In this document: positions 603-34,351 of the stretch, one piece after another
Layout of the letters: the number at the start of each line of letters is the position of its first letter
Position numbering within the stretch: position 1 is the stretch's first letter
From: Aliiglaciecola sp. CAU 1673
GTDB taxonomy: Bacteria; Pseudomonadota; Gammaproteobacteria; Enterobacterales; Alteromonadaceae
Assembly (NCBI RefSeq): GCF_029223185.1
Contig: NZ_JARHUG010000002.1
Span: 1 to 64,000 of the forward strand
Direction of reading: 5' to 3'
Length of the DNA stretch: 64,000 bases
Program-made: the position numbers and the translations under genes
The notes under the pieces: generated by a model
The model's input: the letters and a program-made list of their open reading frames with translations, nothing else
Told to the model about the DNA's origin: nothing
Database searches by the model: none

Positions 603-679
603 CGGCGTGTAGCGCAGCTTGGTAGCGCACTGTCATGGGGTGTCAGGGGTCGGAGGTTCAAATCCTCTCACGCCGACCA
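603..679 (+). tRNA. tRNA-Pro(GGG)
   Basis: A 77-nt cloverleaf with encoded CCA. The acceptor arm CGGCGTG (603-609) pairs with CACGCCG before A-CCA. The anticodon is GGG (637-639), preceded by T636. The overall sequence is very close to the E. coli proL type, including the unusual U-U pair in the anticodon stem. The gene is the integration target of the island to its right. Positions 626-679 also form most of the attL repeat, so the 3' part was supplied by the incoming element and function is preserved. Confidence 0.95.
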
Positions 680-722: not shown

Positions 723-744
723 GGTTTCTCTTAATTTTTTCCTG

Positions 745-774: not shown

Positions 775-779
775 AAACT

Positions 780-2144
780 GTGAAATCCGACACTAAGCAT
801 CTCATTCAAAACGACTCGGGCGTCTGGTTGTTTCGTCGACGCGTTCCCGAAAAACTAAAGAGATTCTTTCCAGGTCTGAAGTTCTTAAAGCAGTCTCTCG
901 AGACGAAGAGCCTCACGCAGGCTCGCGTAAAACGGGATGCCCTAAATACGCAAATCGAACTAAAGCTCCAGGAAGAGACCTCAGGACTCTCTCTCAAGAA
1001 CCGTTTCCAGGCCCTTTATACTGAGATGAAGCCTTTTTACGACGAAGGCCGTCGAATGGTCAGGGAAGGCAAATGGGACGAGAACTTCTTCTATGATTCT
1101 TTTGATCCCGATCTCCAGCGAAAAGAGAACGACGAGACCTACAAAGCCGCTTACTATTCGATTGTTCATAACGAAGTGCCAGAACGATTCAGGCTCAAGA
1201 TCTCTGAACTGACATCCGAATGGCTAAAGGCCAACGAGGGAAAGAAGGACGAGAAATATTGCAGTACCGTACAGACAGCCTCTAAGTTTTTGATCGAATT
1301 CCTGGGGGGCGATGAGCTTCCGGAGAATGTGTCGCCAGGTTATGCCCAGGGCTTCCTCGATAAGCTTATAGAAGGTGGCCGGTCTTCAGGCACAGTTACC
1401 CACTATAAGAGCAAGCTTGCAGAGATTTGGCGATGGGGTCTCACTCGAGAGAAGTTCTCAGGGACTAACCCCTGGAAGGAGGTCAAAGTCGAGGCTCCTT
1501 CCGAGCAAAAAGAGCAAGACCACTTTAGAAACTTAACGACCAAAGAGGCGAGAATACTCCTCCAGGCGACCACCCTTGAGGCTCAGGGCGCTTCGTGGCC
1601 TTATCCGTTTACAACATTTGCCCTCGTCCGTCTTCTTCCCTTCCTTGGCTGTCGTCGAAGCGAACTAGGCCAAGCGATGAAAGACCAACTCCAGGAACAT
1701 GACGGCCATTTATTCTTCGAGGTGCGCAAGGGCAAGACAAAGAACGCTCAAAGGATTATTCCGGTGAGTCCTGTTATCGAACCGCTTCTTCGAGAGACCG
1801 TGGACAGAGCGGGGGAGTCACCTTGGCTGTTCCCCGAAGTCGGAGAGGCCGAGGGAATGACGCCTTCTAAGGCTCTCAATTCTATCTCTAGCCATATCTC
1901 ATCGATAACGAGTAACTTCGAGAAGGTTGAAGGGACAAAGGTCAGTCTTCACAGCTTGCGTGGACACTTTGCGACGGCGCTCGAGGAGATTGGCTGTCCG
2001 GAAGAGCTTGCGGTTAAGCTCGCCGGACATAAACGGATCTCTCTGACTTATGGCCTATACAGCAAGTACAAGAACAAGGAGCAGCTCTGGAAGTATATCG
2101 AGCAGATTCACAGGGCAGAGTGTCTTGAGGCTTGGGTAAGTTGA
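780..2144 (+). CDS. Tyrosine site-specific integrase of the island
   Basis: A 454-residue tyrosine recombinase that would catalyse integration at, and excision from, the 3' end of tRNA-Pro. The N-terminus (about residues 14-30, WLFRRRVPEKLKRFF) resembles the arm-binding region of phage-type integrases of the DUF6538 class. A core-binding helical region covers about 135-235. Catalytic residues are visible: Arg in GCRRSE (about 292), Lys in RKGKTKN (about 317), H-x-L-R in HSLRGH (about 391-394), His in GHKR (about 417) and a Tyr in TYGLYSKY (about 427). The start is GTG at 780, directly after the GGGCAC array. It is transcribed away from attL. No excisionase-like gene was recognised next to it. 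Confidence 0.95.
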   Translation: MKSDTKHLIQNDSGVWLFRRRVPEKLKRFFPGLKFLKQSLETKSLTQARVKRDALNTQIELKLQEETSGLSLKNRFQALYTEMKPFYDEGRRMVREGKWDENFFYDSFDPDLQRKENDETYKAAYYSIVHNEVPERFRLKISELTSEWLKANEGKKDEKYCSTVQTASKFLIEFLGGDELPENVSPGYAQGFLDKLIEGGRSSGTVTHYKSKLAEIWRWGLTREKFSGTNPWKEVKVEAPSEQKEQDHFRNLTTKEARILLQATTLEAQGASWPYPFTTFALVRLLPFLGCRRSELGQAMKDQLQEHDGHLFFEVRKGKTKNAQRIIPVSPVIEPLLRETVDRAGESPWLFPEVGEAEGMTPSKALNSISSHISSITSNFEKVEGTKVSLHSLRGHFATALEEIGCPEELAVKLAGHKRISLTYGLYSKYKNKEQLWKYIEQIHRAECLEAWVS

Positions 2145-2157
2145 GGGGCATCGAAGT

Positions 2158-2961
2158 TCATTCTCCCAGAGCTTTCTCCAGTCGATCGGATAGTTGGGTC
2201 AACTGTGCTTGTTTATTAAGTTCGTTGTACTGGGTGAATCTTTCTGTTGCACAGAGTAAAATCTGGCATACAAAACTGACAATAGTGTCAAAACCATTTT
2301 CGATTGGCTCATTGATCAAGTGAGCAATTCCACCTTCTGAATCAAGCACCAAGTGGGACTCAAGACTTTTGAAATCAGAGTGACTATCTGCACTTCCGAT
2401 CCTGTACATTGTATTGTACCAGTGAAGCATACCAGCCTTTCTAGCGACATCTTCAGTCTTGATTTGGAAATTCCTCAGCGCCTCATTATCTGGAAAAAGC
2501 TTTAGGAGATTTCTTTTTAAGTCTTGTTCACGCGCTTTTATTCTTTTGTATCCATCATTTGATTTACTACCTGTATAGCTATTGAGGTATCCATTGAGAG
2601 CGTTCCGCTGCCCCTTCAGTTCCCATTTCTCAAGCTCCGACCAAAAGGTTCTATCGTTTATTAGAGCAACCATTTGAAAGAGAGGGTCAAGGGAGCAGCG
2701 ATATTGAGAGCTAGCTTGGACACTCATTCCTCTAGTCGCCAAGATGTAACATGACTGAGTGAAATTTAGGATTCGACAGAACAATGTGCCGATATGAAGT
2801 TTTACCACTTCGTCTTTAGGCAATCTGACCTCATATTGGACAGACCAAGCAAGTTGGTTCGCTTCAAGATAGATCGAAATAATCTCAGGGTATTTATTCT
2901 CGATTGTCTTTGTGACATCTAAAGGGTTTTCGACGAGAAATCCATTCTTTACAAAGTTCAT
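2158..2961 (-). CDS. DUF5677-like hypothetical protein
   Basis: A 267-residue protein, convergent with the integrase and ending 14 bp after it. It is rich in alpha-helix, without signal peptide or clear membrane segment. A central stretch (RCSLDPLFQMVALIND) and a later H-W-Y-N/D-S-H-S-D-F pattern resemble the DUF5677 group, whose function is unknown and which is common in mobile and defence-rich regions. No clear ribosome-binding site precedes the ATG at 2961, so the true start may be internal. The family assignment is from memory of the pattern and is tentative. Confidence 0.6.
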   Translation of the reverse strand: MNFVKNGFLVENPLDVTKTIENKYPEIISIYLEANQLAWSVQYEVRLPKDEVVKLHIGTLFCRILNFTQSCYILATRGMSVQASSQYRCSLDPLFQMVALINDRTFWSELEKWELKGQRNALNGYLNSYTGSKSNDGYKRIKAREQDLKRNLLKLFPDNEALRNFQIKTEDVARKAGMLHWYNTMYRIGSADSHSDFKSLESHLVLDSEGGIAHLINEPIENGFDTIVSFVCQILLCATERFTQYNELNKQAQLTQLSDRLEKALGE

Positions 2962-3089
2962 TTATGAATCGGCGCAGGGGGAGTGACTTACCATTTTAAC
3001 TCGAATGTTGACGACAATCTCATAGTTGTCAATGGCTTAGTTATCGATGTAACCTCCTCTTCTTTGGAAGCAGTGAGTTAAGGACAAAA

Positions 3090-3551
3090 ATGTTCAAATT
3101 AAATACAGTGGCGTTTGTAGGACTTTTAACCGCAACTTCGGCAGTTGCCGAGCCTTCGAGTCAGTCTGTCATGATGCAATTGAGAGATACACCCGCATCT
3201 CAGTATGATCTCGGGCTCTTTAAACTGCAGTTAGCTGCATCTGCTCTGGGGGCCAGTATCAAAGACGAGTATATAAAGGGAACGAATTTTAGGATTGAAA
3301 GAGTTGGATTGCTTGAAGACATTGATCGTTTGGATATCGTTGTTTACTTAAAAGGCGACGCCAGAGATATGTCCCCTCAAGCGTGTCAAAACGTTAAAGA
3401 GAAAATAATAAACTCACCTAAATTCAGTTTTTCAGGTTCCAGCTTCTTTAAAGGGGTTTCTGCCGAAAAATTTGAAGAGTTGAATAGCAGCGTAGGGACA
3501 AAGATCGAGATAAGTTCGCGAGAAAACGACTCTTTTAAATTTGAGTGTTAA
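3090..3551 (+). CDS. Exported hypothetical protein
   Basis: A 153-residue protein with a clear signal peptide (about 20 residues, hydrophobic core VAFVGLLTATSAV then AVAEP, a likely SPase I site). The mature part is a small alpha/beta-looking domain with two cysteines (one mid-chain, one at the C-terminus), possibly a disulfide. A good Shine-Dalgarno AAGGA precedes the ATG. I do not recognise the family. It sits between leftward genes and has its own rightward orientation, like the other exported or membrane peptides of the island, which suggests cargo rather than a structural role. Confidence 0.7.
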   Translation: MFKLNTVAFVGLLTATSAVAEPSSQSVMMQLRDTPASQYDLGLFKLQLAASALGASIKDEYIKGTNFRIERVGLLEDIDRLDIVVYLKGDARDMSPQACQNVKEKIINSPKFSFSGSSFFKGVSAEKFEELNSSVGTKIEISSRENDSFKFEC

Positions 3552-3659
3552 CAACAAAAAGGGCTTTCCAAAACCCCTCCCAGAAATGAAACGACGGGGT
3601 GCGAATAACCCTCGGAGTAGGTCTCAGGAAGGACCCGCTCCGAAGGTCTCATCGACTCA

Positions 3660-3983
3660 TCAGGCAGCGGCGAAGCTATCAAGCTCTCTAAGGATATTAC
3701 TACGTTCCTCCCTCAGCATTGTCTCCTCTTCGGCTAACTGTACGAGGCGATCTCTCAGGGTTCTCTGTGCTGGAGATTCTGAATGATAGAGCCTCGCTAG
3801 CTCGATGAGGGTGCTGAAAGGAGACGCTTTCGGCTTACTCTTTCTCTTGTATCTCTCACGCGCTCTCTCGTTGGTACAGACCTTACATTGGGAACGTCTG
3901 GTGGGACCGTTTCGATGATACTGGGGGAGGCCTTTAGTTATGCCGCAGCGGGTGCATATTTTTACTCGGGTGTTCTTGCTCAT
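3660..3983 (-). CDS. Small zinc-ribbon protein with C-terminal coiled coil
   Basis: A 107-residue protein. Residues about 10-35 contain two cysteine pairs (CTRCG and CKVC) that form a probable zinc ribbon, followed by a basic stretch (RARERYKRKSK). The C-terminal half is a charged helix (LAEEETMLREERSNILREL), probably a coiled coil. Similar short Cys4 proteins occur in phages beside HNH nucleases and regulators, but no HNH motif is present here. It is the last gene of the leftward capsid block, starting 15 bp after the stop of the preceding HTH-like gene. Confidence 0.65.
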   Translation of the reverse strand: MSKNTRVKICTRCGITKGLPQYHRNGPTRRSQCKVCTNERARERYKRKSKPKASPFSTLIELARLYHSESPAQRTLRDRLVQLAEEETMLREERSNILRELDSFAAA

Positions 3984-3997
3984 GTTGACTCTGGATT

Positions 3998-4453
3998 TCA
4001 GTGGTAGGTTCTTGGATTGATGTATTCGATGATCCGACTGGGAAGCCGAAGCTCTCTATCAATTGAGAACGACGCGAACTTAATCACATTGACGATCCTC
4101 CACCCTGTATCGTGGTTTACTGCGAGGGTCTCACAGACACGTCTTGGGGTAATTCGCCCTCTAAGTGTGCATAGGGAACGGAATACCTTGTTCAGGCTCA
4201 CGTAGTTGCTCGTAGATGTCTCTCGTTTGTCCCGCTCTCCAAGCACTCGGATCGCGCCCATGAGACAGTCATCAATCCAGACGCGTGGGCGTCCCTCGTT
4301 GTTCATGTAGACGGCAGGATCGACATCATCAAGAGGATTTTTAATGGTTAAGGGAGGTCGCCCTGGGCTCTTGGGAAAGGGGGGCTGAACCTCGTCGATA
4401 GGTTGTTGTTCGATATCTAGGAATTCGAATAGGTCTAGTTGTTCGTAAGACAT
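3998..4453 (-). CDS. Putative HTH DNA-binding protein
   Basis: A 151-residue reading from the ATG at 4453 (MSYEQLDLFEF). The frame stays open upstream to 4609, but the internal ATG gives a protein with a natural acidic N-terminus. The middle carries a GRPP motif of the kind seen in minor-groove-binding hooks. The C-terminal third (ITPRRVCETLAVNHDTGWRIVNVI) has the shape of a helix-turn-helix. It may be a regulator of the island or a DNA-recognition partner for packaging. No family was recognised. Neither start has a strong ribosome-binding site. Confidence 0.55.
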   Translation of the reverse strand: MSYEQLDLFEFLDIEQQPIDEVQPPFPKSPGRPPLTIKNPLDDVDPAVYMNNEGRPRVWIDDCLMGAIRVLGERDKRETSTSNYVSLNKVFRSLCTLRGRITPRRVCETLAVNHDTGWRIVNVIKFASFSIDRELRLPSRIIEYINPRTYH

Positions 4454-4748
4454 GGCTAATTTATCTGGTAAATATAAGGGGATCGAAAAGACGCTCTCAG
4501 AGACAGGGGCGAATCGAAAATGAAGACGCTCCAGAGACCATTTTTCTCTCAACACAACAATCGGGAGCATTGGTCTTAAAAGTGGCGTCGAGACAGGGAC
4601 TAAGTCCATCTCGCTTAGTTGGTATCGCTTCGAGTGGATCTCGACAGGCGTCTTTAAGGGGATGTCGTTTCGAATGGGGTTGCCAAGGAAGAAAAGAGCA
4701 ACCCTATCGAAGCGAGGTTCTTTGGATCGAAAAGACAGAGCTTAACGA

Positions 4749-5102
4749 TCAGTACCTCGTCTGACTCTCCAGCCATTCGATGTATCCATGAGGTTTGAAT
4801 CGTTGGTAGCTGAGGTTGTGTCGATTCATCGCTCTTTCGCTGTCTTTGATATCAGCTCTCGCACTCGAAAGAAGGTATCGATAGACATCCTCAGCTTGGT
4901 TATGAGTCAGCTTGTAAGCTTTTTTAAGCCAATCCTTTGTCCTTGAGTTAAGGATAAAGGGCATATAGTTGCCGAAGTGATGAACGATGATCCGCACTCC
5001 TCCGCTCCCAAGTTTAAAGTCTGTGTCGGGGTCACCGGCTCTGGTCGAGAAGCTTGCTCCTTTGGCATCGTTTAGGGCTATCTCAAATTGAAGTTTGCTC
5101 AT
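4749..5102 (-). CDS. Hypothetical protein of the capsid block
   Basis: A 117-residue soluble protein, start ATG 5102 with GGAG at good spacing. The N-terminal half looks like beta strands (GGVRIIVHHFGNYMPFIL) and the C-terminal half is helical and basic. It is encoded directly downstream of the capsid gene (75 bp), so a role in capsid assembly, size control or DNA packaging is possible by position only. About 295 bp separate it from the HTH-like gene to the left. That gap holds no clear gene apart from the open upstream extension of the HTH frame. Confidence 0.6.
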   Translation of the reverse strand: MSKLQFEIALNDAKGASFSTRAGDPDTDFKLGSGGVRIIVHHFGNYMPFILNSRTKDWLKKAYKLTHNQAEDVYRYLLSSARADIKDSERAMNRHNLSYQRFKPHGYIEWLESQTRY

Positions 5103-5176
5103 GGTTTGTCTCCATAGATTGTTGTCAATAGGGGATTTGGAATTGCCCCAGGAAAGATCCCCCAGGGCCTGCTCGA

Positions 5177-6196
5177 TTAGACGATGCCGTCTACTTTCAC
5201 GAAGCTGTCTTGATTTAGGATGAGGCAGTCGGCATCAAACATTGAGCGAACTCTTGTCATTCCCGCCTCAGGTTGTCCTTCCGGTGTGTAACTGTGAGCC
5301 AGGAATTCGATCTGATTTCCAGTAACTCCCAGTAAGTCTGAGAAGCGTCCCGCGACCAGTGTCCCTGTAGGCAGGTGGGACGAAACCAGCACTCGATTCA
5401 AGTCCATGTTTTTGAAGGCTCGAGCCGAGGTCTCTTCTCGCATCTTTTTAGCGACATCAACCGAAACGATGGCCGAGAGGCTTTCGATGCCTATTTTGTT
5501 AGTCTCCAGGGCTGATAGAGTGTCCGCGAAGATCTCTCTCATCGACGCTCTGGGAGAGATAGTCTGTGAAATGCTCTTCAGAAGGCCGTCAGGCTGATCA
5601 GGATTGATTGAGGAGTCTCCCGTTAAGAAAGCTATCTCCAATTGCTCTCGAATCGCTTTTGCTTGGGCGATATTTAGCTCACTGACCAAAGCTGGAACAA
5701 GTTTCCTCATTCGACGAGAAACCAAAGAGAAGACTCCTATCGTGTGGATCTGATAGGGGAAGTTGACGGTCGCTGGAGTGCTCTCGGGGATCTCAGCATT
5801 CTCTCCAAGCCAGGTTGCATTGACAGAACTTGAGAATCCGCCGATAAAGGGGGTGCCTTCGAAAAGACCACTCGTATCGATGCTCATCCCAGCCTGAGTT
5901 AATACGTTAGAGGATACGATCACTTGTCTCCAGGTCAGATCGTTTCGCTTGTTCGAGTTGGTGATGTCGGGGGAGTTGGCGACAGTCAGGTCTCGAAGCA
6001 AGGAACGGGAGGCGCTCTGAAGTTTTTCCTCTTCACCTTTTTGAACCAGGGGGGCATTAATCGAGACACTCAGAGTCGAGGGGGAAGGCTGACGAAAACC
6101 TTTGAAGTTGTCGTTTTGGTCGAAGGTTGGGATCTGCTCTGGTTGAGCGTTGTCTAAAAGTTCAGCGAAAGAACGGTTCTGTGTTGGTAATTGCAT
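5177..6196 (-). CDS. HK97-family major capsid protein
   Basis: A 339-residue protein with the typical features of the Phage_capsid (HK97 fold) family. These are a conserved core from about residue 88 (LTWRQVIVSSNVL), the ATWLGENAEIPES segment at about 127-139 and the SLVSRRM segment at about 157-163. The helix ending in FLTGDSS and then DQPDGLL follows at about 190-205. The first 85 residues are polar and helical and could serve as a scaffolding (delta) domain, but no prohead protease gene is present nearby. The start is ATG 6196 with AAGG upstream. It is the only recognisable virion gene of the island. An encapsulin-like role is a less likely alternative, because no cargo enzyme is encoded beside it. 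Confidence 0.9.
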   Translation of the reverse strand: MQLPTQNRSFAELLDNAQPEQIPTFDQNDNFKGFRQPSPSTLSVSINAPLVQKGEEEKLQSASRSLLRDLTVANSPDITNSNKRNDLTWRQVIVSSNVLTQAGMSIDTSGLFEGTPFIGGFSSSVNATWLGENAEIPESTPATVNFPYQIHTIGVFSLVSRRMRKLVPALVSELNIAQAKAIREQLEIAFLTGDSSINPDQPDGLLKSISQTISPRASMREIFADTLSALETNKIGIESLSAIVSVDVAKKMREETSARAFKNMDLNRVLVSSHLPTGTLVAGRFSDLLGVTGNQIEFLAHSYTPEGQPEAGMTRVRSMFDADCLILNQDSFVKVDGIV

Positions 6197-6313
6197 TTGT
6201 ATACCTTGTGGGTTGGTTAATGGGATGGGCTGAGGGTGAGTTCGTGGCGTCGCCCTGAGTTAGTCGGAGAGACCAACCGTCACGAAACTATTTGGGAGTC
6301 TGGAATACGGCTC

Positions 6314-6673
6314 TCAGGTTGTCTCAGAGTCGTTCTCGGGTTCTTTAGGATCGAATGAAAAGTGTTTGAATTCTTTCGCCATAACAGCGTGACGATTCCT
6401 CATTAGTACATGGTTAATGTAACGAGCGAGCTTGAGACGGTCGGAGTCATAGTTATTCACCATATCGAACCATAAGAACAACAGATGCTTAACGACGTTG
6501 CTTGAAGAGATGTTTATTTCAGTGACTTCGTTCAGATCATTTTTCAGCGCATCGAAAAGATCAGCGACATGAGGATGAAACCCGATGTTGTGTGTTCTGG
6601 TTCCACTCGAAGACCTCATCAACAACTTATCGATAGCTAAATCAGTTTGTTGGTCGGATGGGATTTCAATCAT
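6314..6673 (-). CDS. Hypothetical helical protein
   Basis: A 119-residue protein, ATG 6673 with AGGAAA upstream. It looks all-helical, with a hydrophobic central helix (VVKHLLFLWFDMV) and an acidic, low-complexity tail. It lies between a small RHH-like gene (28 bp) and the capsid gene (117 bp) in the same direction, so it is probably co-transcribed with them. I do not recognise the family. A role in capsid redirection or regulation can only be guessed from position. Confidence 0.6.
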   Translation of the reverse strand: MIEIPSDQQTDLAIDKLLMRSSSGTRTHNIGFHPHVADLFDALKNDLNEVTEINISSSNVVKHLLFLWFDMVNNYDSDRLKLARYINHVLMRNRHAVMAKEFKHFSFDPKEPENDSETT

Positions 6674-6701
6674 TGGTATTTTCCTGTTAGTGGTGGAGGA
6701 T

Positions 6702-6899
6702 TTATGTCCTGGCGACGCTCGCTTCGTGACCTAGCTTGATCAGATAGGAGATTGACGCTGAGACGGTGGGTTGAACTCCGGTTATCTCGGAGAGTTTGAT
6801 CTGTGCGTCCAGAATGCGACGTTCTGTCGCGCTGTCTGCACTGAAGGCGAATCGACGGGATGTCGTTCCGTGTTCTTGGCGGTGCTTGAGTTGTGACAT
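6702..6899 (-). CDS. Small RHH-like protein, first gene of the leftward operon
   Basis: A 65-residue protein with a very good ribosome-binding site (AAGGAG, 8 bp before ATG 6899). The sequence goes from a basic strand (TSRRFAFSADS) to two helices (ATERRILDAQIKLSEI and VSASISYLIKLGHEA). This order fits a ribbon-helix-helix DNA-binding protein. As the first gene after the control region it is a good candidate for an autoregulator of the capsid operon. The fold is inferred from pattern, not from a profile match. Confidence 0.6.
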   Translation of the reverse strand: MSQLKHRQEHGTTSRRFAFSADSATERRILDAQIKLSEITGVQPTVSASISYLIKLGHEASVART

Positions 6900-6944
6900 C
6901 GAGTGAACTCCTTATGTCCTAGTGATGTAAAGTTGCAAAAAAGA

Positions 6945-7085
6945 TCCCTCATTCGTTGAGGAAGTCTTTAGGACGTCCTTAAGGACAGCCCCAGAGACCC
7001 AACGCCAACAAGTAAAGGGGGAATAGAGAGCCCGACAGCTCCAGGGGAGGAGAGGAACCTGGAGTCTTACGTCGGGGCTTTTGTT
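6945..7085. other. Cluster of inverted repeats in island control region
   Basis: Several palindromes lie close together upstream of the leftward operon: CCTCA/TGAGG (6947-6961), AGGACGTCCT (6970-6979), which overlaps GTCCTTAAGGAC (6975-6986), and a nested hairpin at 7029-7082. The nested hairpin has an outer AGCCCGAC paired with GTCGGGGCT and an inner CTCCAGG/CCTGGAG, and it ends in TTTT on the + strand. It could be a terminator, a small RNA or a protein-binding region. A 62-codon minus frame across it (6912-7100) is not convincing as a gene. Confidence 0.55.
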
Positions 7086-7138
7086 GTCGATGATGACCAA
7101 ACGATGAGGGGGGCGTATATCAACGAGAGAAAACGGTG

Positions 7139-7291
7139 TGTTCTTTCTTCATGTTCGGAGGGACAATTCCTGAGCCCTTACCAGATAAGGCTTTGAACTA
7201 ATCGACGTAGTCGTCTTAAAGACGGGTCGAAAGGGTTGGTCTCTAGAATTCACTTCAGCCTGTTCTTTCTTCTGTACGGAGGGACAATTCC
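7139..7291 (+). repeat. Pair of 31-32-bp direct repeats (operators or iterons)
   Basis: A 32-bp stretch starting TGTTCTTTCTTC and ending GGAGGGACAATTCC (7139-7170) recurs at 7261-7291 with one indel and one substitution. The copies are 122 bp apart, in the gap between the leftward operon and the rightward small genes. A small palindrome, CGTCTTAAAGACG, lies between them. Position suggests control of divergent transcription or a recognition site for replication or packaging. The function is unknown. Confidence 0.7.
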
Positions 7292-7390
7292 GGAAGCCTT
7301 ATCTTGGCAGGGATTGAGCGTTTCGGTTATTCGTCAGATTCAAAGAGGGATGGAGCGAATACTTTCTTCAAAAAGGAGCGATATATCCTA

Positions 7391-7546
7391 ATGGGAAATT
7401 CTATGCACTGGCCAAGCAAACTACTTCGAGCTTTTATCGTTCTTTCCATTGTGAATGCCTACATTTTTTGGATCTCTCTATTCGCTGAGAGCTCTGGTTC
7501 TTTTCTGTCTGAGTTTCCTAAATTTAGAGTCTTCAGTAATATTTAA
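7391..7546 (+). CDS. Small single-TM membrane peptide
   Basis: 51 residues from ATG 7391, preceded by AAGGAG about 12 bp upstream. The frame is open from 7304 but the upstream part has no ribosome-binding site. One hydrophobic segment (LLRAFIVLSIVNAYIFWISLF) is followed by a short polar tail. It could be an inner-membrane peptide, for example toxin-like or signalling, but nothing specific is recognised. It is encoded just upstream of an exported protein in the same direction. Confidence 0.45.
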   Translation: MGNSMHWPSKLLRAFIVLSIVNAYIFWISLFAESSGSFLSEFPKFRVFSNI

Positions 7547-7582
7547 CTCTCAATGTACTTGTGATTTTGAGGATGACCTGGG

Positions 7583-7915
7583 ATGAAGTACGTACTAATG
7601 GCCGCAGCTATTTCATTGCTCCATATCTCTTGCTCTGAAGCAACTGAAGTAGATGCTTACGATAATTTCGAAGGAAAGTTGATTGAACTGAGAAGCGGGG
7701 TTGGTTTGCATACCCTAGCTTTAAAACTTGACACAAAAAGACCGAGTAGTTGCGAAGATGCTCGAAATGAGTTTTTCATAATCCCTTCAAGTAATACTAC
7801 AGCAATAATGATAGCGGCTGGGGCGAGTAAAAGAGATGTTCTGAGGGGGAGGGCTTTTCTTGATGCTAGCTCAAAAGATTGCATGGTAGAGAGAATCATC
7901 CGAATACCTCAATGA
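7583..7915 (+). CDS. Exported hypothetical protein
   Basis: 110 residues with an N-terminal signal sequence (MKYVLMAAAISLLHIS) ending at a cysteine. This could be a lipoprotein, but the -3 to -1 residues (HIS) are a poor lipobox, so SPase I cleavage is an alternative. The mature part has two further cysteines (SSCEDAR and KDCMVER) that could form a disulfide. GAGG precedes the ATG. It is the second exported product of the island. Family not recognised. Confidence 0.6.
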   Translation: MKYVLMAAAISLLHISCSEATEVDAYDNFEGKLIELRSGVGLHTLALKLDTKRPSSCEDARNEFFIIPSSNTTAIMIAAGASKRDVLRGRAFLDASSKDCMVERIIRIPQ

Positions 7916-8026
7916 ATGCAATCTTAAGTATGTGAGAGCGTTTGATGTAGTCCAGGGACCTCTTAAATGCCTGTTTTTAAAAATGGCATAGAAAATACAC
8001 TATCCTGAGACTTTAGAGGTTTCTTA

Positions 8027-8470
8027 TTACGACTTATCTCTGTGCCTCCCAATATATATAAGGGACGGGGACAGGATGATTATTGGGATTTCCGAACCAA
8101 TTAGCTCATCAACCTGCTCATCGTCCATTAACGGTTCCCATCGATAGCTGAGAGTATCTCTCAGTCTGATGTTATGTATATCCCCAGGACGAGCTCCAAA
8201 AATCATCTCGTCGAAATCTTCGGGATAAACTCCTCTCGATTCAAACTGCTCATCCTCAAAAAGGTAATCCATGAGGATGTCCTGGAGCTCCATAGGTAGC
8301 TCTGTCACAGAAGTCTGAGGCGCTAATAAAGCCTCTAGATGACGCATGGCAGAGATTTCGGTGCCTTGAGTATCCAGCCACTCTGCAGAGCCTATCGAAG
8401 CTCTGAGGACGGCCTGAGCGTCTACTCCCAATGAGAGAATTGAGTGGGCGTTGCTAGTGGTTCTTTTCAT
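8027..8470 (-). CDS. Hypothetical protein
   Basis: 147 residues from ATG 8470, chosen because GGAG lies 11 bp upstream. The frame is open to a TTG at 8638 with no ribosome-binding site. The protein is acidic, without signal or membrane segments. A central segment (ELQDILMDYLFEDEQFESRGVYPEDFDEMIF) is rich in acidic and aromatic residues, and the C-terminus is beta-like (PIIILSPSLIYIG). It lies 195 bp downstream of the PD-(D/E)XK-like gene in the same direction. I do not recognise it. Confidence 0.5.
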   Translation of the reverse strand: MKRTTSNAHSILSLGVDAQAVLRASIGSAEWLDTQGTEISAMRHLEALLAPQTSVTELPMELQDILMDYLFEDEQFESRGVYPEDFDEMIFGARPGDIHNIRLRDTLSYRWEPLMDDEQVDELIGSEIPIIILSPSLIYIGRHRDKS

Positions 8471-8665
8471 TGATTTTAGTCTCCAGAAAGTTCTACTCAG
8501 AAGGCATCCTAGGAGGTTGGGAATGATGTCGTCAACAGGTGTAACTTTCTGAAAAATAATGAATAATCCCGCTGGTGGGACAATGTGTCCGACATCCTTT
8601 TCTAGGGTGGAGGCCTGCTGAGGAGGAGAGGCGTTCAAGGATTAAGATTGTCCCCGAGAGTCAGC

Positions 8666-9136
8666 CTAAAATTTTTTTGAGATTTTTTCAGAGGGGCTCA
8701 CCTCAGCTTGCAATTTGATCAATTGATTTAGCGAGACACTCAGTTGACCATTGTCGGGGATCTTTCTCCCTTCGAGTATCTTCCAGATCCTTTCTCCCGA
8801 GCCGTTGTATATTTCATCGAATGAGCCGTCCTTGTGGAGTTTAATCACGATGACGGACTCTGGAGCTGTCTTGACGCCGTCATAACGGAACGCGACAGAA
8901 GTTGACTGAGTGCATTTAATTTCGACTTCCTTCCCGCATGGAGAGATGGCATCGAAGCCAGCGTTTGAAGCTGTCATAAGATCGAGGCCATACAGGTCAG
9001 CGACCAGGACCTCTCCTAGGCTTCCAACCATATGTCCATCTGGAGTGAAGTGACGCCCTGTCATCTCATGTAGCCTCTGAACGATGTCGTATAGCTGACG
9101 GATTAGTTCCTTCAGTTTGTCGTGGTCGATCTGCAT
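8666..9136 (-). CDS. PD-(D/E)XK nuclease-like protein (DUF6998-type)
   Basis: 156 residues. After an N-terminal helical region the sequence GSLGEVLVADLYGL (about 38-51) is followed by GFDAISPCGKEVEIKCT (about 60-76). This gives the order E42, D62 and E72-I-K74 of a restriction-endonuclease-like fold. The pattern matches small proteins grouped as DUF6998, thought to be related to PD-(D/E)XK nucleases. A DNA-targeting role in host defence or in competition with phages is an inference. ATG 9136 has GGAAGGA upstream. It is divergent from the coiled-coil gene at 9208. Confidence 0.7.
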   Translation of the reverse strand: MQIDHDKLKELIRQLYDIVQRLHEMTGRHFTPDGHMVGSLGEVLVADLYGLDLMTASNAGFDAISPCGKEVEIKCTQSTSVAFRYDGVKTAPESVIVIKLHKDGSFDEIYNGSGERIWKILEGRKIPDNGQLSVSLNQLIKLQAEVSPSEKISKKF

Positions 9137-9207
9137 CTATAGTTGTCCTTCCAAAAATTCTCTCTTAACTTGAATCTCTTAGATCTCAGCTTACACAAGG
9201 AAACGCT

Positions 9208-9759
9208 ATGGATAACTCAAAACTTCAAGAGAACTCCGGGTCAAAAAAGAAAGGAGACGAGACAAACGTCATTTGGCTCATTGGTGCAATGATGGCTGTT
9301 GTGATGATGTGGCTCATAAACGGTTTTATTTATCCTCTTTTCGTTACCGGACTCAATGATAGGGCTCTTAACGGTGATGCTTTCGGAGCCGTAAACTCTC
9401 TGTTCAGTGGATTAGCCTTTGCGGGTCTTATCTACACCATCTTGATGCAAAAGAAAGAACTGCAACTTCAGCGCGAAGCGTTGAGCAGACAACATGAGGA
9501 AATGCAGGAATCCAGAGGAGAGCAGGAGTTGCAAAATCGAATTCAAACAGTTCAAGTTGAGTCTTTGATCAGGCAAATGACAATTGCAGGCTTAGAAGCG
9601 AGGATTCAGGCTTTGAAACTAAACGGCCACAAGGCTGACAGCCCAAAGGTGGCGGCTGATGCTGTAATAAAGATTGTAGAGTTGTCCGACCAAATACTAG
9701 AACAATCTCGTAAAGCAGCAGATTCTGCTAAAGACCTGATCAGGAAATCTTCGCTATAA
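9208..9759 (+). CDS. Two-TM membrane protein with coiled coil (putAbiC-like N-terminus)
   Basis: 183 residues with AGGA before ATG. TM1 covers about 22-50 (VIWLIGAMMAVVMMWLINGF) and TM2 about 66-83. The TM2 region, GDAFGAVNSLFSGLAFAGLI, is a motif common in accessory-region proteins, including those with a putative phage-abortive-infection (putAbiC) annotation. Residues 85-125 form a coiled coil (KKELQLQREALSRQHEE). The C-terminal effector part seen in longer relatives is missing. It is the last gene before attR, a usual cargo place, so a defence role is plausible but unproven. Confidence 0.65.
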   Translation: MDNSKLQENSGSKKKGDETNVIWLIGAMMAVVMMWLINGFIYPLFVTGLNDRALNGDAFGAVNSLFSGLAFAGLIYTILMQKKELQLQREALSRQHEEMQESRGEQELQNRIQTVQVESLIRQMTIAGLEARIQALKLNGHKADSPKVAADAVIKIVELSDQILEQSRKAADSAKDLIRKSSL

Positions 9760-9771
9760 AAATTTAAGTAT

Positions 9772-9819
9772 GGGCATAAATAACTTTAAGGGCACAGGGA
9801 GGGGCACGTTATGGGGCAC
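9772..9819 (+). promoter_or_regulatory. Right arm-type integrase sites: three GGGCAC boxes, 12-bp period
   Basis: GGGCAC occurs at 9790, 9802 and 9814, again exactly 12 bp apart and in the + orientation, with a weaker GGGCAT at 9772. Together with 745-774 this gives both ends of the island matching triple arrays. They lie 49 bp inside attR. Probable binding sites of the integrase N-terminal domain. Confidence 0.7.
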
Positions 9820-9867
9820 ATAAAATGTCTAACCCATTGAATTTATTGGCTTGTTTTTCGCATTTCT

Positions 9868-9922
9868 CGCACTGTCATGGGGTGTCAGGGGTCGGAGGTT
9901 CAAATCCTCTCACGCCGACCAA
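9868..9922 (+). repeat. attR: 55-bp core repeat, displaced tRNA-Pro 3' end
   Basis: Identical over 55 bp to 626-680. It lacks the 5' part of the tRNA, so it is not a gene but the host tRNA 3' end displaced by integration. Confidence 0.95.
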
Positions 9923-10245
9923 CTTCTCTCTTGTTTAGATACCCACTTAACTCAAAAAAACACTCAGAAGTCTATGAACCTTCGACATGAGCGCGATAGC
10001 GGTCACAGTCGGAGTTCACTAAAACGCCTGGAGCGTTTTAGAACATCGTCTGCAAGACGATGGCCCGAAGGGCGGAGGGCAGGAGCCCGGAGTAAATCCT
10101 CTCACGCCGACCAACTTCTCTCTCTTCCCCAGATTGTCTCTGAATTTTCAAAATACTCAGAACTGTCGGAACCCTCGACATGAGCGCGCTAGCGGTCTCG
10201 GTCGGAGTTCACTAAAACGTCTGGAGCGTTTTATTCGCCACTTCC
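9902..10245 (+). repeat. Tandem units with tRNA-Pro 3' tail and hairpin module
   Basis: The tRNA-Pro 3' tail (AAATCCTCTCACGCC...) at 9902 recurs at 10094, a period of 192 bp. The intervening spacer, containing GACATGAGCGCG and CGGAGTTCACTAAAACG, also recurs in degenerate form. The first unit ends in a multi-hairpin module. TAAAACGC-CTGGA-GCGTTTTA (10020-10040) is followed by GAACA and then TCGTC-TGCAA-GACGA (10046-10060). GCCC-GAA-GGGC (10063-10073) and GGGC-AGGA-GCCC (10077-10088) complete it. This is not a tRNA gene, since no 5' half is present. Confidence 0.75.
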
Positions 10246-10328
10246 ATGTGGCTCACCTGCAAGCAGGCCAGCTGAAGCTGTTCTGATTTGCTCCATGCAA
10301 ATCTTGGAGAACATCGGCGGCAAGACGA

Positions 10329-10613
10329 TGGCCCGTAGGGCGGAGCACAGGACGTGCGTAGTACAAATTCGTCTGGAGCGTTTTATTCCCCACCTTTCCC
10401 TACAACATCCTGTTTTCGCTCAAGGTCCTGGCCAGACTTTCCTTGCCTGACCGTATGCTGTGAAAATTGCTGTGTGCACTCGCAATTTCTCGTTCACAGC
10501 ATACCCCTATAGCTCACTTGCTTTGCAAGCTGGCTAAAGCCGTTCTGATTTGCTCCAAGCAAATCTTGGTGAAGATCGTCTGTAAGACGATGGCCCGCAG
10601 GGCGGAGGGCAGG
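10329..10613 (+). repeat. 285-bp direct repeat, copy 1
   Basis: Collinear with 13852-14136 (constant offset 3,523 bp) with only scattered substitutions. It contains a 12-bp perfect inverted repeat, GTATGCTGTGAA (10453-10464) and its complement at 10493-10504, with AAATTGC/GCAATTT nested inside. Further small palindromes occur, such as ATTTGC/GCAAAT and ATCGTC/GACGAT. No coding capacity is evident. Confidence 0.85.
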
Positions 10614-10796
10614 GTGAAAGCGGAAAAGAAACAGCAAACAGTTTTGCTGTTTCCCGATTGAACGACCTGAGCTCTGAGAAGGGCTGGATCGGCAGGAGTA
10701 CAAATTCGTCTGGAACGAATTTGAACAGCTTTAGCTGGCCCATCGGGTGGAGTACAGGACGTACGGAATAAAACTCTCACGCCGACCAACTTCTCA
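10614..10796 (+). repeat. Hairpin module array ending in a tRNA-Pro-like tail
   Basis: Continues the repeat cluster. It holds AAACAGCAAA/TTTGCTGTTT around 10630-10655 and AAATTCGT-CTGGA-ACGAATTT (10702-10722). GAACA and AGCT-TT-AGCT-GGCC follow, then GTAC-AGGAC-GTAC (10752-10764). It closes with CTCTCACGCCGACCAA (10774-10789), a fragment of the tRNA-Pro 3' end. The CTGGA and AGGA(C) loops are the same as in the other copies while the stems differ and still pair. Confidence 0.7.
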
Positions 10797-10868
10797 TTGC
10801 CCAAAGTCCCGCTATTATTGGGCTACAGACAAGCACCAAGAGCTAAAACTCGCGAACTACTCACGCAG

Positions 10869-11150
10869 ATGACCTACCCAGATTTGTGTGTGTGCGCCAG
10901 CGCACAGAAGGGTGCTGGCTTTATTGATACACTACCAACTCAATGGCAGGCAGCACGGCTTGCAATAAGGGATAGTGATGTCAGGCAATCCTTCTTAAAA
11001 GAAATACAACCTTCTGATTTATTTAGCGATCCTTGGCAAAAGCAAACATTTAGCTTGGGTAAAGTGCCGCTAGAACTGCATCCTCAGCAAGCAAAGAAGC
11101 AGGCACAAAGTGCTAGTCAAAGATCGATGAATCTTACCAACCGCAAATAG
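10869..11150 (+). CDS. Doubtful hypothetical protein
   Basis: The frame is open from 10797. The first ATG is at 10869, giving 93 residues with no recognisable domain and no clear ribosome-binding site. Composition (many Q, K, A) is plausible for protein but also for chance. It lies between the hairpin array and the short gene before nhaA. Listed with low confidence because the surrounding 450 bp would otherwise be empty. Confidence 0.25.
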   Translation: MTYPDLCVCASAQKGAGFIDTLPTQWQAARLAIRDSDVRQSFLKEIQPSDLFSDPWQKQTFSLGKVPLELHPQQAKKQAQSASQRSMNLTNRK

Positions 11151-11274
11151 GTTACATAGCAATTATCAGTATCCTGCGGCTGCTTCCCTCAGATGTGGGC
11201 GAGTCACGGCCATGTATCCAGTTTACACAGGCAATCAGCGCAGCCTGAATTGCCGCAAATCAAGGTCAACGTCA

Positions 11275-11463
11275 ATGAAACAGATAAGTGAAGTGGATCG
11301 CCAAAAGATGCGCCAATATGGGATCAGCGAAACCAGCAAAACCCTCTATTGGTACAACAATTACTGCTATGAAAAGCTTCAGGACGCCATTAATTATGCA
11401 CAATTGGACGCTATTCGAGGCGTCAAGCAGCCTGAACCCCCGACAATGAGTAGTGCCAAATAG
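11275..11463 (+). CDS. Small hypothetical protein upstream of nhaA
   Basis: 62 residues from ATG 11275 (MKQISEVDRQKMRQYGIS). It is acidic to neutral with an aromatic middle (TLYWYNNYCYEKLQDAINYAQ). Its stop overlaps the GTG start assigned to nhaA, so it may be translationally coupled to the antiporter. I recognise no family. The upstream Shine-Dalgarno is weak. Confidence 0.45.
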   Translation: MKQISEVDRQKMRQYGISETSKTLYWYNNYCYEKLQDAINYAQLDAIRGVKQPEPPTMSSAK

Positions 11464-12838
11464 CATGCTAGTGAATGGCCCTAACGGACATGGCCAAGAC
11501 GACAAACTGCAAAACCTGCCCCCTGAGCTAATCGATTGGGTCAACAAACCGCTGGCGCGCTTTTTCCATATTGAAACGGCCGCCGCAGGCATCTTGCTCG
11601 TGGTGACCATACTGGCTCTGTTACTGGCCAATTCTCCCTGGTCCGAACAATTCCTGGCGCTTTGGAAGGTAGAGCTGGGGATAAGCCTGGGGCAATTCGG
11701 CATCCATCTCTCTCTGCTTGAGTGGATAAACGATGCGGTCATGACCCTGTTCTTCTTTGTCGTCTCCCTTGAGCTTAAACGTGAGTTGGTGTTAGGAGAG
11801 CTGCGTCAACCGCGCCAGGCCTTGTTGTCTGTCAGCGCGGCCATTGGTGGCATGGTTGTTCCCGCCGGTCTTTATCTATTGGTGTTGTGGGGGCAACCGG
11901 GCGCACAGGGATGGGGCATGGTAATGGCAACCGACACGGCCTTTGTGATTGGCTGCCTGGCATTACTGGGTAAGCGTATTCCCGTGCAACTAAGAGTGTT
12001 TTTGTTGTCCTTAGCCATAGTGGATGATATCGGTGCCATTCTTGTGGTTGCTGTGGGGTACGGTGAGAGCCTGAATCTTCAGGCATTGGTTTTGGCTGCA
12101 ATTGGTCTATTGATAATCAAAGGCATGGGGTTACTTGGCATTCGTAACTTGATGCTGTACTTCCTGATGGGGGCGGCGATCTGGCTGGCCATTGAACACT
12201 CCGGTATTCATCCCACTGTGGCCGGGGTGGTACTGGGGTTGATGACCCCAACATTGAGATGGGTCAGTGACGAACGCTTGCACCAAATTCTGGAAAATGT
12301 TGTCGCACAACCGTCTGGAGCGAATTGGGGTGGCATTGGTTTGGCCAGAATGCAACTGCGTACTGCCGAAGCCGCGGCCAGAGAAGCTTTGTCGCCGGTC
12401 GAACGCTTGGAGATCTTACTGCATCCCTGGGTAGGTTTTCTGGTGATGCCGCTTTTCGCCTTTGCCAATGCAGGGGTTCCCTTTGCACAGACCAATATCT
12501 TAGATCCCCTGGTGTTGAGTATTGTGCTGAGTTTGCTGATAGGTAAACCGCTGGGGATTTTCCTGTTTACCTGGATGGCAGTGCGATTGAAGATCGCGGT
12601 GCGCCCTCCAGAGTTAAGTTGGTCTTTAGTGGTGGCAGGCGGATGCTTATGTGGTATCGGTTTCACCATGGCCTTGTTTATTGCCGGATTGGCCTTTTCG
12701 CCGACCCAGATGAATGACGCTAAATTTGGCATCCTGCTGGCGTCGGCGATTTCAGCAGTTACCGGGCTTTTGTTGGTTTTATTGTCCACAGGCCTTGCCA
12801 AGCCAAATCAAGACCTATTAGAGGCGCCGAGACGGTGA
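11453..12838 (+). CDS. nhaA: Na+/H+ antiporter NhaA
   Basis: 461 residues of the NhaA family, an inner-membrane electrogenic antiporter that exports Na+ (or Li+) in exchange for protons. The N-terminal segment FFHIETAAAGILLVVTILALLLANSPW is typical. The paired aspartates of the ion site appear in LAIVDDIGAIL (about 189-190), and GTDTAFVIGCLALLGKRIP-type motifs are recognisable. The C-terminal region SLVVAGGCLCGIGFTMALFIAGLAF is well conserved. The start is uncertain between GTG 11453 and ATG 11465. Neither has a good ribosome-binding site, and coupling to the small gene in front is possible. It lies with the next gene between two 285-bp direct repeats. Confidence 0.95.
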   Translation: MPNSMLVNGPNGHGQDDKLQNLPPELIDWVNKPLARFFHIETAAAGILLVVTILALLLANSPWSEQFLALWKVELGISLGQFGIHLSLLEWINDAVMTLFFFVVSLELKRELVLGELRQPRQALLSVSAAIGGMVVPAGLYLLVLWGQPGAQGWGMVMATDTAFVIGCLALLGKRIPVQLRVFLLSLAIVDDIGAILVVAVGYGESLNLQALVLAAIGLLIIKGMGLLGIRNLMLYFLMGAAIWLAIEHSGIHPTVAGVVLGLMTPTLRWVSDERLHQILENVVAQPSGANWGGIGLARMQLRTAEAAAREALSPVERLEILLHPWVGFLVMPLFAFANAGVPFAQTNILDPLVLSIVLSLLIGKPLGIFLFTWMAVRLKIAVRPPELSWSLVVAGGCLCGIGFTMALFIAGLAFSPTQMNDAKFGILLASAISAVTGLLLVLLSTGLAKPNQDLLEAPRR

Positions 12839-12875
12839 ACATTTCGATTAACCCGTCCAATCAAGGGGCCGCAGG

Positions 12876-13727
12876 ATGAAACGCCTTAAGGTTATCCATC
12901 AGACCAGCTATCAGTTTTCTGACTCGGTACAACTGCAACCCCATGGGTTGCGGCTTAGGCCCCGTGAGGGCCATGACCAGCATATTGAGTCGTCAAGGCT
13001 TACCATAAACCCTCCTGCCAGCCTGCGCTGGCATCGTGATGCGGAAGGCAACTCGGTGGCCATCGCCTCTTTTGATACGGCGACAAACCATCTGTCCATC
13101 GAGAGTGAGACAGTGGTGCAACAGTTCGATGTTGCGCCGCAAGATTGTTTGGTGGCTGACTATGCGGTGAACTATCCATTCAATTACCTGGAAGAGGATA
13201 GGGCGTCATTGTCCTGCTACATGGCGAATGCCACGTCTCCTGGCTGTGCGTCGGTAGGCAATTGGGTTGGCGAAGGCGAAGACACACAGGGAATGCCGAT
13301 CTTCTCATTGTTATTGCAATTAAATCAGCGCATCTATCAAGGCATTGCTTATCGCGTTCGTGAGGAAGAGGGCGTGCAAAGCCCGCAGCAAACCCTTGAG
13401 TATGGTACAGGGTCATGCCGGGATATGGCCGGATTGTTTATGTCTGCCGCCAGGCGATTAGGCTTTGCGGCAAGATTTGTCAGTGGTTATATCTACACCA
13501 ATGACATCGTCGTCCAGTCCGGCTCAACCCATGCCTGGGCGGAGGTATTTATACCCGGTGCAGGCTGGAAGGGGTTCGATCCTACTTTCGGAACGCTGGT
13601 CGGCGTTGAGCACATTGCCGTGGCCGTCGCCAGAGAGCCACAATCCATTCCACCTATCGCCGGTAGCTTTTACGGTACGCCTTTTTCATCCATGAGCGTG
13701 AATGTCTGGGTGTTGGATGTCGGCTGA
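12876..13727 (+). CDS. Transglutaminase-like cysteine protease family protein
   Basis: 283 residues with the bacterial transglutaminase N-terminal beta domain (about 1-85, KVIHQTSYQFSDSVQLQPHGLRLRPREG) and a transglutaminase core. The catalytic triad is visible: Cys in GSCRDMAG (about 179), His in STHAWAEV (about 218) and Asp in GFDPT (about 234). No signal peptide, so it is cytoplasmic. Members of this family are thought to be peptidases or amide-modifying enzymes of unknown substrate. The start ATG 12876 follows GCAGG. It is 38 bp after nhaA in the same direction and may be co-transcribed. Confidence 0.9.
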   Translation: MKRLKVIHQTSYQFSDSVQLQPHGLRLRPREGHDQHIESSRLTINPPASLRWHRDAEGNSVAIASFDTATNHLSIESETVVQQFDVAPQDCLVADYAVNYPFNYLEEDRASLSCYMANATSPGCASVGNWVGEGEDTQGMPIFSLLLQLNQRIYQGIAYRVREEEGVQSPQQTLEYGTGSCRDMAGLFMSAARRLGFAARFVSGYIYTNDIVVQSGSTHAWAEVFIPGAGWKGFDPTFGTLVGVEHIAVAVAREPQSIPPIAGSFYGTPFSSMSVNVWVLDVG

Positions 13728-13739
13728 GTGCTAATTTGG

Positions 13740-14165
13740 GGTCAGTAGCTTTTCTATTTGTTACCTTCATCTGTCTCTGTTGTCCCGCAGGGCGAAGCAC
13801 AGGAAGTGCGCAGTACAAATTCGTCTGGAACGAATTTGAACAGCCGAAGGCTGGCCCGCAGGGCGAAGCACAGGACGTGCGGAGTACAAATTCGCCTGGA
13901 GCGTTTTATTCGCCACCTTTCCCTACAACATCCTGTTTTCGCTCAAGGTCCTGGCCAGACTTTCCTTGCCTGACCGTATGCTGTGAAAATTGCTGTGTGC
14001 ACTCGCAATTTCTCGTACACAGCAAACCCCTATAGCTCACTTGCTTCGCAAGCTGGCTAAAGCCGTTTTGATTTGCTCCAAGCAAATCTTGGTGAACATC
14101 GACGGCACGACGATGGCCCACAGGGCGGAAGGCAGGAAGCCTTGTGTAAATCCTCTCAAGCCGAT
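13740..14165 (+). repeat. Second hairpin-repeat cluster, includes 285-bp direct repeat copy 2 (13852-14136)
   Basis: It begins with GCAC-AGGAA-GTGC (13797-13809) and AAATTCGT-CTGGA-ACGAATTT (13817-13837). GAACA, AGCC-GAA-GGCT (13842-13852), GCCC-GCA-GGGC and GCAC-AGGAC-GTGC (13868-13880) follow. The 285-bp repeat shared with 10329-10613 then runs to 14136. It ends with an AAGGC-AGGAA-GCCTT hairpin and a decayed tRNA-Pro tail (TAAATCCTCTCAAGCCG). The central inverted repeat is imperfect here, unlike in copy 1. No gene lies in 13728-14305. Confidence 0.8.
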
Positions 14166-34015: not shown

Positions 34016-34351
34016 TACCAAGTCCAATAAATAAGTGATCATTCAGCGAGAGCCAAAATGTTCACTGTCAAGGCGGGGGGTTTTAGGTTTAGTAGGACTA
34101 AATCAAAGGCGCCCAATAACGCCAGGGGGCATTTTGGCCTCGCCCGCAGGGAGCGGCCAGAAAGGCTTACCTCCGCGTTCCCACTTCTCGACGTAGACGC
34201 CACTATGCCTTCACAAATGTTTCTGGAAAACATTTGAACATCCGAAGGATGGCCAAAGGCGAAGGGATTGGAGCCCTTAGTCAAGCGGCGCCTTGATCTA
34301 AGCCTTTCTGACTCGCTCTGAATTGACCGCTTATTTAATGGACTTGGTATT
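34016..34351. mobile_element. MITE-like element with 31-32-bp inverted ends
   Basis: TACCAAGTCC at 34016 continues as a 31-bp end that matches, with a few changes, the reverse complement of 34318-34349. The ends are flanked by TA, which suggests a TA target as in IS630/Tc1-type elements. The 336-bp interior has no gene. It contains the module AAATGTTT-CTGGA-AAACATTT (34215-34235), GAACA, then TCC-GAA-GGA-TGGCC, the same design as the hairpin repeats at 10.0-14.1 kb. The right end touches the moeA stop codon. Confidence 0.8.

What the first reader, a model, noticed from the sequence alone, without database searches (positions are those of the whole stretch)
10020..14165. Family of hairpin modules with invariant loops and co-varying stems
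Several copies share the order stem-CTGGA-stem', GAACA, stem, TGGCC, GCCC-N3-GGGC, stem-AGGA(C)-stem'. Stems change but still pair: TAAAACGC, AAATTCGT and AAATGTTT around CTGGA; GGGC/GCCC, GCAC/GTGC, GTAC/GTAC and AAGGC/GCCTT around AGGA(C). A further copy lies inside the MITE at 34215-34254. Compensatory change with constant loops argues for selection or a copying mechanism that keeps structure, in RNA or in single-stranded DNA.
Basis: seen in the sequence. Interest (0 to 1): 0.7.

Follow-up and report, generated by a model that had tools for sequence, protein, structure and literature searches.

The report
tRNA-linked repeats with CsrA-type hairpins
The hairpin modules are copies of a four-hairpin RNA that sits behind tRNA and rRNA genes in many proteobacteria; its stems are freely rewritten while two loops keep the GGA bound by the regulator CsrA, so a repeat family thought peculiar to E. 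coli and its relatives looks like a widespread, partly mobile set of CsrA-binding RNAs.

Summary
Confirmed and much extended. The module is about 73 nt with four adjacent hairpins: 9 bp around CNGGA, a variable hairpin, GCCC-NNN-GGGC, and 4-9 bp around AGGA(N). In 60 sequences 18 of 22 pairs covary (255 compensated cells against 69 shuffled). A second set, 30 copies mostly from another class, repeats this (106 against 22). The host genome holds 76 matches; 110 of 274 class-level genomes have some.

It is not REP-like. It is the tRNA-linked repeat (TLR) family of E. coli, which includes Rfam RtT. Where a tRNA precedes, copies lie sense, usually 33-100 nt behind it (37 of 38, plus 11 of 11 new loci). 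Many are followed by a repeat of that same tRNA's 3' end, the TLR hallmark. My model, built without enterobacterial sequence, hits E. coli rrB behind rrnB 5S at 70 bits. Published gel shifts show that RrB binds CsrA through GGA motifs (PMC8144298). That paper judged the tRNA-linked TLRs of E. coli unlikely CsrA binders. Outside enterics they keep GGA in both loops (139 and 142 of 150).

Best reading: small CsrA-binding RNAs tied to stable-RNA transcription, some captured by a MITE. CsrA binding by these copies is inferred, not shown. Scarce G-U pairs suggest template switching helps rewrite stems.

The parts
603..679 (+). tRNA-Pro(GGG), the stable-RNA gene to which the array belonged before an island was inserted
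   Evidence: ARAGORN and Rfam
9868..9921 (+). Second copy of the tRNA-Pro 3' 54 nt, the far end of the island; the first module begins about 95 nt beyond it, near the spacing seen behind intact tRNA genes elsewhere
   Evidence: 100% identity to tRNA positions 24-77; sequence
9975..10018 (+). Upstream hairpin of the unit (CGACATGAGCGCG...GTCGGAGTTCA), corresponding to the 5' part of RtT
   Evidence: fold, z -5.25; RtT alignment
10017..10094 (+). Module 1: hp1 10019-10041 (loop CTGGA 10028-10032), hp2 10044-10062, hp3 10063-10073, hp4 10077-10088 (loop AGGA), tail GGAGTA
   Evidence: 83.2 bits; fold identical to the model
10094..10113 (+). Repeat of the last 20 nt of tRNA-Pro (AAATCCTCTCACGCCGACCA) directly after module 1, the TLR hallmark
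   Evidence: sequence
10150..10363 (+). Module 2: upstream hairpin and hp1 (10213-10233), then an inserted opposite-strand module, then hp2-hp4 (10309-10363)
   Evidence: sequence
10232..10305 (-). Opposite-strand module lying between hp1 and hp2 of module 2
   Evidence: 30.2 bits
10363..10627 (+). Degenerate module 3: hp1 with mismatched arms, about 190 nt of inserted sequence, then hp2-hp4
   Evidence: 15.8 bits for 10551-10627; 94% identical to 13852-14136
10699..10770 (+). Module 4: hp1 AAATTCGT-CTGGA-ACGAATTT, hp4 GTAC-AGGAC-GTAC
   Evidence: 74.5 bits; fold
10774..10786 (+). Repeat of the tRNA-Pro 3' end (CTCACGCCGACCA) after module 4
13743..13815 (+). Partial module (hp3-hp4) joined head to tail to the next
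   Evidence: 27.7 bits
13814..13886 (+). Module 5, best copy in the window
   Evidence: 91.4 bits, E 3e-24
14074..14148 (+). Module 6: hp2-hp4 intact (hp4 AAGGC-AGGAA-GCCTT), hp1 displaced; followed by a decayed tRNA 3' end
   Evidence: 45.3 bits
14016..14090 (-). Weak opposite-strand module next to module 6
   Evidence: 20.7 bits
34016..34349 (+). MITE with 20-bp terminal inverted repeats; related copies elsewhere in the genome (L002, L003, L229) also carry the module
34212..34282 (+). Module carried inside the MITE, GGA kept in both loops
   Evidence: 54.3 bits; fold

Best explanation
The modules are members of the tRNA-linked repeat (TLR) family, which includes Rfam RtT and E. coli RrA/RrB/RrF. 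Each unit is a pseudo-3'-end of a stable RNA gene: a short 5' hairpin, the four-hairpin module, then a copy of the 3' end of the neighbouring tRNA (or 5S). It is probably transcribed with, or by read-through from, the tRNA operon and freed by tRNA-type processing. The released RNA would present two GGA apical loops and bind CsrA/RsmA, making a low-affinity CsrA titrator whose supply follows stable-RNA synthesis. Family membership, covariation, sense orientation and conserved GGA are shown here. Transcription, CsrA binding and titration by these copies are inferred from RrB. Some copies have been spread secondarily, for example by a MITE.
For: RF00391 RtT hits a tRNA-Lys-type copy of this genome at 55.1 bits (cut-off 45), several others at 20-39 bits, and window 9951-10112 at 20.9 bits. 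The reverse test works: model R1, with no enterobacterial sequence in it, hits E. coli rrB behind rrnB 5S at 70.2 bits, E 2e-20, and the three tyrT rttR repeats at 23-28 bits. The TLR hallmark is present: of 37 copies behind a tRNA, 17 have at least 14 of the last 17 nt of that neighbour tRNA repeated directly downstream, mean 12.6 against 8.7 for other isotypes. Orientation is sense behind tRNA in 37 of 38 and 11 of 11 further loci. GGA is in the hp1 loop of 139/150 and the hp4 loop of 142/150, against 5 and 9 of 150 for hp2 and hp3, although stems and the second loop base vary freely. The mostly out-of-class set gives 28/30 and 29/30. The hp4 core C-A-(N)-GGA-N-G matches the CANGGANG apical-loop motif cited for CsrA/RsmE (PMC4894983). 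RrB binds CsrA at about 100 nM and loses binding when GGA motifs are changed to UUU (PMC8144298). csrA is in the genome and lies just upstream of a tRNA-Ser/tRNA-Arg array carrying modules.
Against: No transcript or CsrA-binding data exist for these copies. Several units lie beyond an intrinsic terminator of the tRNA operon (e.g. L218, L156), so they need read-through or their own promoter. The E. coli tyrT repeats lack GGA loops, and the TLR paper predicted that tRNA-linked TLRs of E. coli do not bind CsrA. Deleting rrA/B/F gave only modest phenotypes there. The two GGA loops are about 45 nt apart, more than the 18-nt optimum cited for a CsrA dimer. Some genomes carry many dispersed identical copies, which looks more like spread than regulation. 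The models were partly selected for GGA and pairing.
Confidence: 0.68

Rival explanations
1. The modules are mainly selfish or passively copied DNA: non-autonomous elements spread by recombination and MITE capture, with hairpins kept because replication slippage and template switching repair them, and no RNA function.
For: 76 matches in one genome; at least 18 near-identical dispersed copies in G305; MITE carriage; nested opposite-strand modules; head-to-tail arrays; scarcity of G-U pairs and excess of double changes between close paralogues.
Against: Does not explain invariant GGA in two loops and not in the other two, nor the 37:1 sense bias behind tRNA genes, nor recurrence behind many tRNA types in two classes.
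Confidence: 0.2
2. The units are tRNA or rRNA trailers that help 3'-end processing or transcription termination: a decoy 3' end recognised by the tRNA processing enzymes, with the hairpins protecting the end.
For: The repeated tRNA 3' end with CCA after each module; terminators next to units; the TLR paper notes that the repeated 3' end is known to matter for processing.
Against: A processing role does not need GGA in apical loops; dispersed copies lack the tRNA end.
Confidence: 0.2
3. REP-like elements mobilised by a Y1 (RAYT) transposase, as suggested by the first reader.
For: Two Y1_Tnp proteins in the genome; hairpin repeats.
Against: No module within the roughly 1.5 kb held on either side of either gene; no fixed REP tetranucleotide layout; fixed orientation behind tRNAs.
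Confidence: 0.03

Closest known systems
E. coli RrA, RrB, RrF (TLRs between the dual terminators of rrnA, rrnB, rrnD; PMC8144298)
   Same: All four hairpins, GGA in hp1 and hp4 loops, copy of the upstream gene's 3' end after the module; 70.2-bit match
   Different: Linked to 5S rRNA rather than tRNA; described as conserved only in Enterobacterales; few, nearly identical copies
RtT RNA / rttR of the tyrT operon (Rfam RF00391)
   Same: Unit layout, hp2-hp3-hp4, tRNA 3' end repeat, tandem repeats behind a tRNA
   Different: E. coli copies have short hp1 and hp4 without GGA; most window copies score below the family's cut-off
CsrB/CsrC and RsmX/Y/Z sRNAs
   Same: Several stem-loops with GGA in the loops; proposed CsrA titration
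   Different: Dedicated genes with many sites; no stable-RNA linkage; no Rfam CsrB in this genome; RsmY only as a sub-threshold match
REP/BIME and RAYT systems
   Same: Dispersed intergenic hairpins, some clustered
   Different: No RAYT next to modules, different anatomy, fixed orientation behind tRNAs

Membership tests
TLR (tRNA-linked repeats) | Located in a tRNA or rRNA operon, downstream of the gene | tested here: met
   37 of 38 sense behind tRNA; 11 of 11; window array behind tRNA-Pro. Dispersed copies do not meet it
TLR (tRNA-linked repeats) | 3' end of 18-19 bp identical to the 3' end of the upstream gene | tested here: met
   Window 10094-10113 repeats 20 nt of tRNA-Pro; 17 of 37 copies have at least 14 of 17 nt. 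Not met by dispersed copies and decayed in others
TLR (tRNA-linked repeats) | Transcribed and processed from the stable-RNA transcript | not testable with these tools
   no RNA data
Rfam RF00391 RtT | Score at or above the gathering cut-off (45 bits) | tested here: inconclusive
   One copy of this genome 55.1 bits; window copy 20.9 bits, below cut-off
CsrA-binding RNAs (RrB type) | A(N)GGA in apical loops of hairpins | tested here: met
   hp4 142/150; hp1 has CNGGA in most of its 139/150 GGA loops; 29/30 and 28/30
CsrA-binding RNAs (RrB type) | Binds CsrA through those GGA motifs | not testable with these tools
   shown for RrB in PMC8144298 only
REP / RAYT | Linked Y1 transposase | tested here: not met
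   two Y1 genes, no module in the loci fetched around them

The most novel reading that the evidence does not exclude
TLRs are an old, proteobacteria-wide system that couples CsrA activity to transcription of tRNA and rRNA operons. Their stems are continually rewritten by DNA template switching, so that perfect hairpins with fixed GGA loops persist while the stem sequence turns over.
Probability: 0.35. Interest if true: 0.75.

Novelty: new variant of a known kind. Interest (0 to 1): 0.6.

Why it matters
The TLRs have been known since 1978 and were said in 2021 to have no known function apart from the three rRNA-linked ones, which were called unique in their affinity for CsrA. The data here show that the CsrA-type loops are the common form outside enterics, in tRNA operons of many types, and that it is the E. 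coli tyrT repeats that lack them. That makes a general function directly testable in culturable marine bacteria. The freely varying yet perfect stems also offer many natural replicates for the question of how RNA stems change both sides together.

Tried and rejected
REP/RAYT origin: no module near the two Y1 genes. Virus spread: only 1 match in 2.9 million viral contigs, probably by chance. A general outer helix closing the module: flank complementarity exceeds shuffles in only 13 of 91 copies, mostly Xanthomonadales copies that share conserved flanks, so not general. Rfam beyond tRNA and RtT: no family at cut-off in the window or in 28 loci. Literature searches for rttR by name were swamped by unrelated uses.
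Full report
CHECK OF THE OBSERVATION. A covariance model (R1) built from 60 modules finds them at 10017-10094, 10699-10770, 13814-13886 and, inside a MITE, 34212-34282, with partly disrupted copies at 10289-10363 and 14074-14148 and weaker ones beside them. The module has four hairpins with almost no spacers. hp1 is 9 bp around C-N-GGA. hp2 varies in length. hp3 is GCCC-NNN-GGGC. hp4 is 4 to 9 bp around AGGA(N). In 60 sequences 97.9% of cells pair, 18 of 22 pairs change on both sides, and there are 255 compensated cells against 69 in shuffles; sliding the partners by one base drops pairing to about 40%.

Because those 60 were chosen partly for good stems, I repeated the hp1 test on copies anchored only on hp2-hp4 sequence. 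hp1 is there in 79 of 112 with 8.7 of 9 pairs (4.75 when arms are swapped between copies), with 45 distinct arms. hp1 was taken there as the best of a few offsets, which favours pairing somewhat, but arm swapping shows the size of the effect. A second set of 30 copies, mostly from another class of the phylum, gives 106 compensated cells against 22. That alignment was fitted to R1 and so leans towards its structure.

DISTRIBUTION. The host genome (4.26 Mb, 36 contigs, in the same family as Aestuariibacter halophilus, judged from identical match spacing) has 76 matches. Of 274 genomes of the class, 110 have matches. Outside the class, mostly one family is rich in them.

WHAT IT IS. Reading the flanks showed that many modules sit in a split T-arm...GGTTCGA-module-GTAATCC...CCA. 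Where a tRNA gene precedes, the module is sense in 37 of 38 cases, usually 33-100 nt behind it, for Pro, Arg, Glu, Gln, Ser, Tyr, Ala, Gly and Lys tRNAs. In 17 of 37 the sequence directly after the module repeats at least 14 of the last 17 nt of that same tRNA. Rfam gave the name: RtT (RF00391) matches one copy of this genome at 55.1 bits and the window's first unit, over the full model, at 20.9 bits. RtT is the repeat behind E. coli tyrT. My model in turn finds the three tyrT repeats (23-28 bits) and, far more strongly, the repeat behind the 5S gene of rrnB (70.2 bits), although no enterobacterial sequence went into it.

This is the TLR family. A 2021 paper (PMC8144298) reports 22 TLRs in E. 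coli, whose hallmark is an 18-19 bp copy of the upstream gene's 3' end. It shows that the rRNA-linked RrB RNA binds CsrA at about 100 nM, that changing GGA motifs to UUU abolishes binding in the tested range, and that the other TLRs of E. coli score low for CsrA binding. It describes conservation only within Enterobacterales.

HOW IT MOST LIKELY WORKS. Two of the four loops keep GGA almost without exception: hp1 139 of 150, hp4 142 of 150, while hp2 and hp3 have it in 5 and 9. The second hp1 loop base is free (G, T, A, C) and the stems are free, so this is not shared ancestry alone. The out-of-class set shows 28 and 29 of 30. hp4 reads C-A-(N)-GGA-N-G, the CANGGANG loop motif cited for CsrA/RsmE (PMC4894983). 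The simplest reading is that most of the family outside enterics keeps CsrA-binding loops and that the tyrT type of E. coli lost or lacks them. The RNA would be made with, or by read-through from, the tRNA operon and would take up some CsrA in proportion to stable-RNA synthesis, as proposed for RrB. Steps shown here: homology, structure, orientation, GGA conservation. Steps inferred: transcription, processing, CsrA binding, effect on regulation.

SPREAD AND STEM TURNOVER. Not all copies are tRNA-linked. The window's MITE (334 bp, 20-bp inverted repeats) and related copies elsewhere in the genome carry the module. G305 has at least 18 near-identical dispersed copies in a larger element. Modules also lie inside one another: in L218, a tRNA-Arg array downstream of csrA, an opposite-strand module sits in the hp2 loop; in the window one sits between hp1 and hp2 of module 2. 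Stems change in a peculiar way. G-U pairs are 0.6-2.2% of pairs against 5.4% in tRNAs of the same loci, and close paralogues differ by 18 double and 4 single stem changes. Template switching during replication can create and repair stems in one event (PMC8794818) and would fit. Numbers are small, the alignments favour paired forms, and gene conversion between copies could give the same pattern, so this stays a suggestion.

COMPARISON ACROSS GENOMES AT THE SAME tRNA. Of 30 family genomes inspected at tRNA-Pro(GGG), four outside the host have units right behind the gene and most have none. In the host, a 9.2-kb island with an integrase and a capsid gene has entered the tRNA and now separates it from its array; the first module lies about 95 nt beyond the far att copy, near the usual spacing.

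VERDICT. A real, structurally constrained RNA family: new members and a broader form of a known kind, with a concrete and testable function. The main claim beyond the literature is that GGA-bearing TLRs are the common form across proteobacteria and occur in tRNA operons.

Noticed in passing
window 603-9921: Island of about 9.2 kb in tRNA-Pro(GGG), flanked by a 54-bp direct repeat, with a tyrosine integrase (780-2144) and a phage capsid-type protein (5177-6196): a small prophage or satellite. G025 (L252) shows similar sequence behind the same tRNA.
   Followed up: partly
window 10329-10613 and 13852-14136: 94% identical 285-bp repeats flank a block with a Na+/H+ antiporter (11453-12838) and a transglutaminase-like protein (12876-13727); the block may have entered or been duplicated by recombination within the module array.
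   Followed up: partly
L218 (G000:C34:56200-58500) and L233: csrA lies just upstream of a tRNA-Ser/tRNA-Arg array that carries three modules, so a possible CsrA-binding RNA is made next to csrA.
   Followed up: partly
window 30839-30896: Perfect 8-bp tandem repeat CAAAGTCC, 7.2 copies, next to or within an ORF on the minus strand; possibly phase-variable.
   Followed up: no
L101 around 936-1008: A module flanked by a nearly perfect 19-bp inverted repeat, unlike tRNA-linked copies.
   Followed up: no
L094 6430-6528: hp2 of one module contains a complete terminator-like hairpin with a T run in its loop.
   Followed up: no
L072, L093: Two Streptomyces matches to the hp2-hp4 pattern lack the rest of the module and look like chance matches in coding DNA.
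   Followed up: partly
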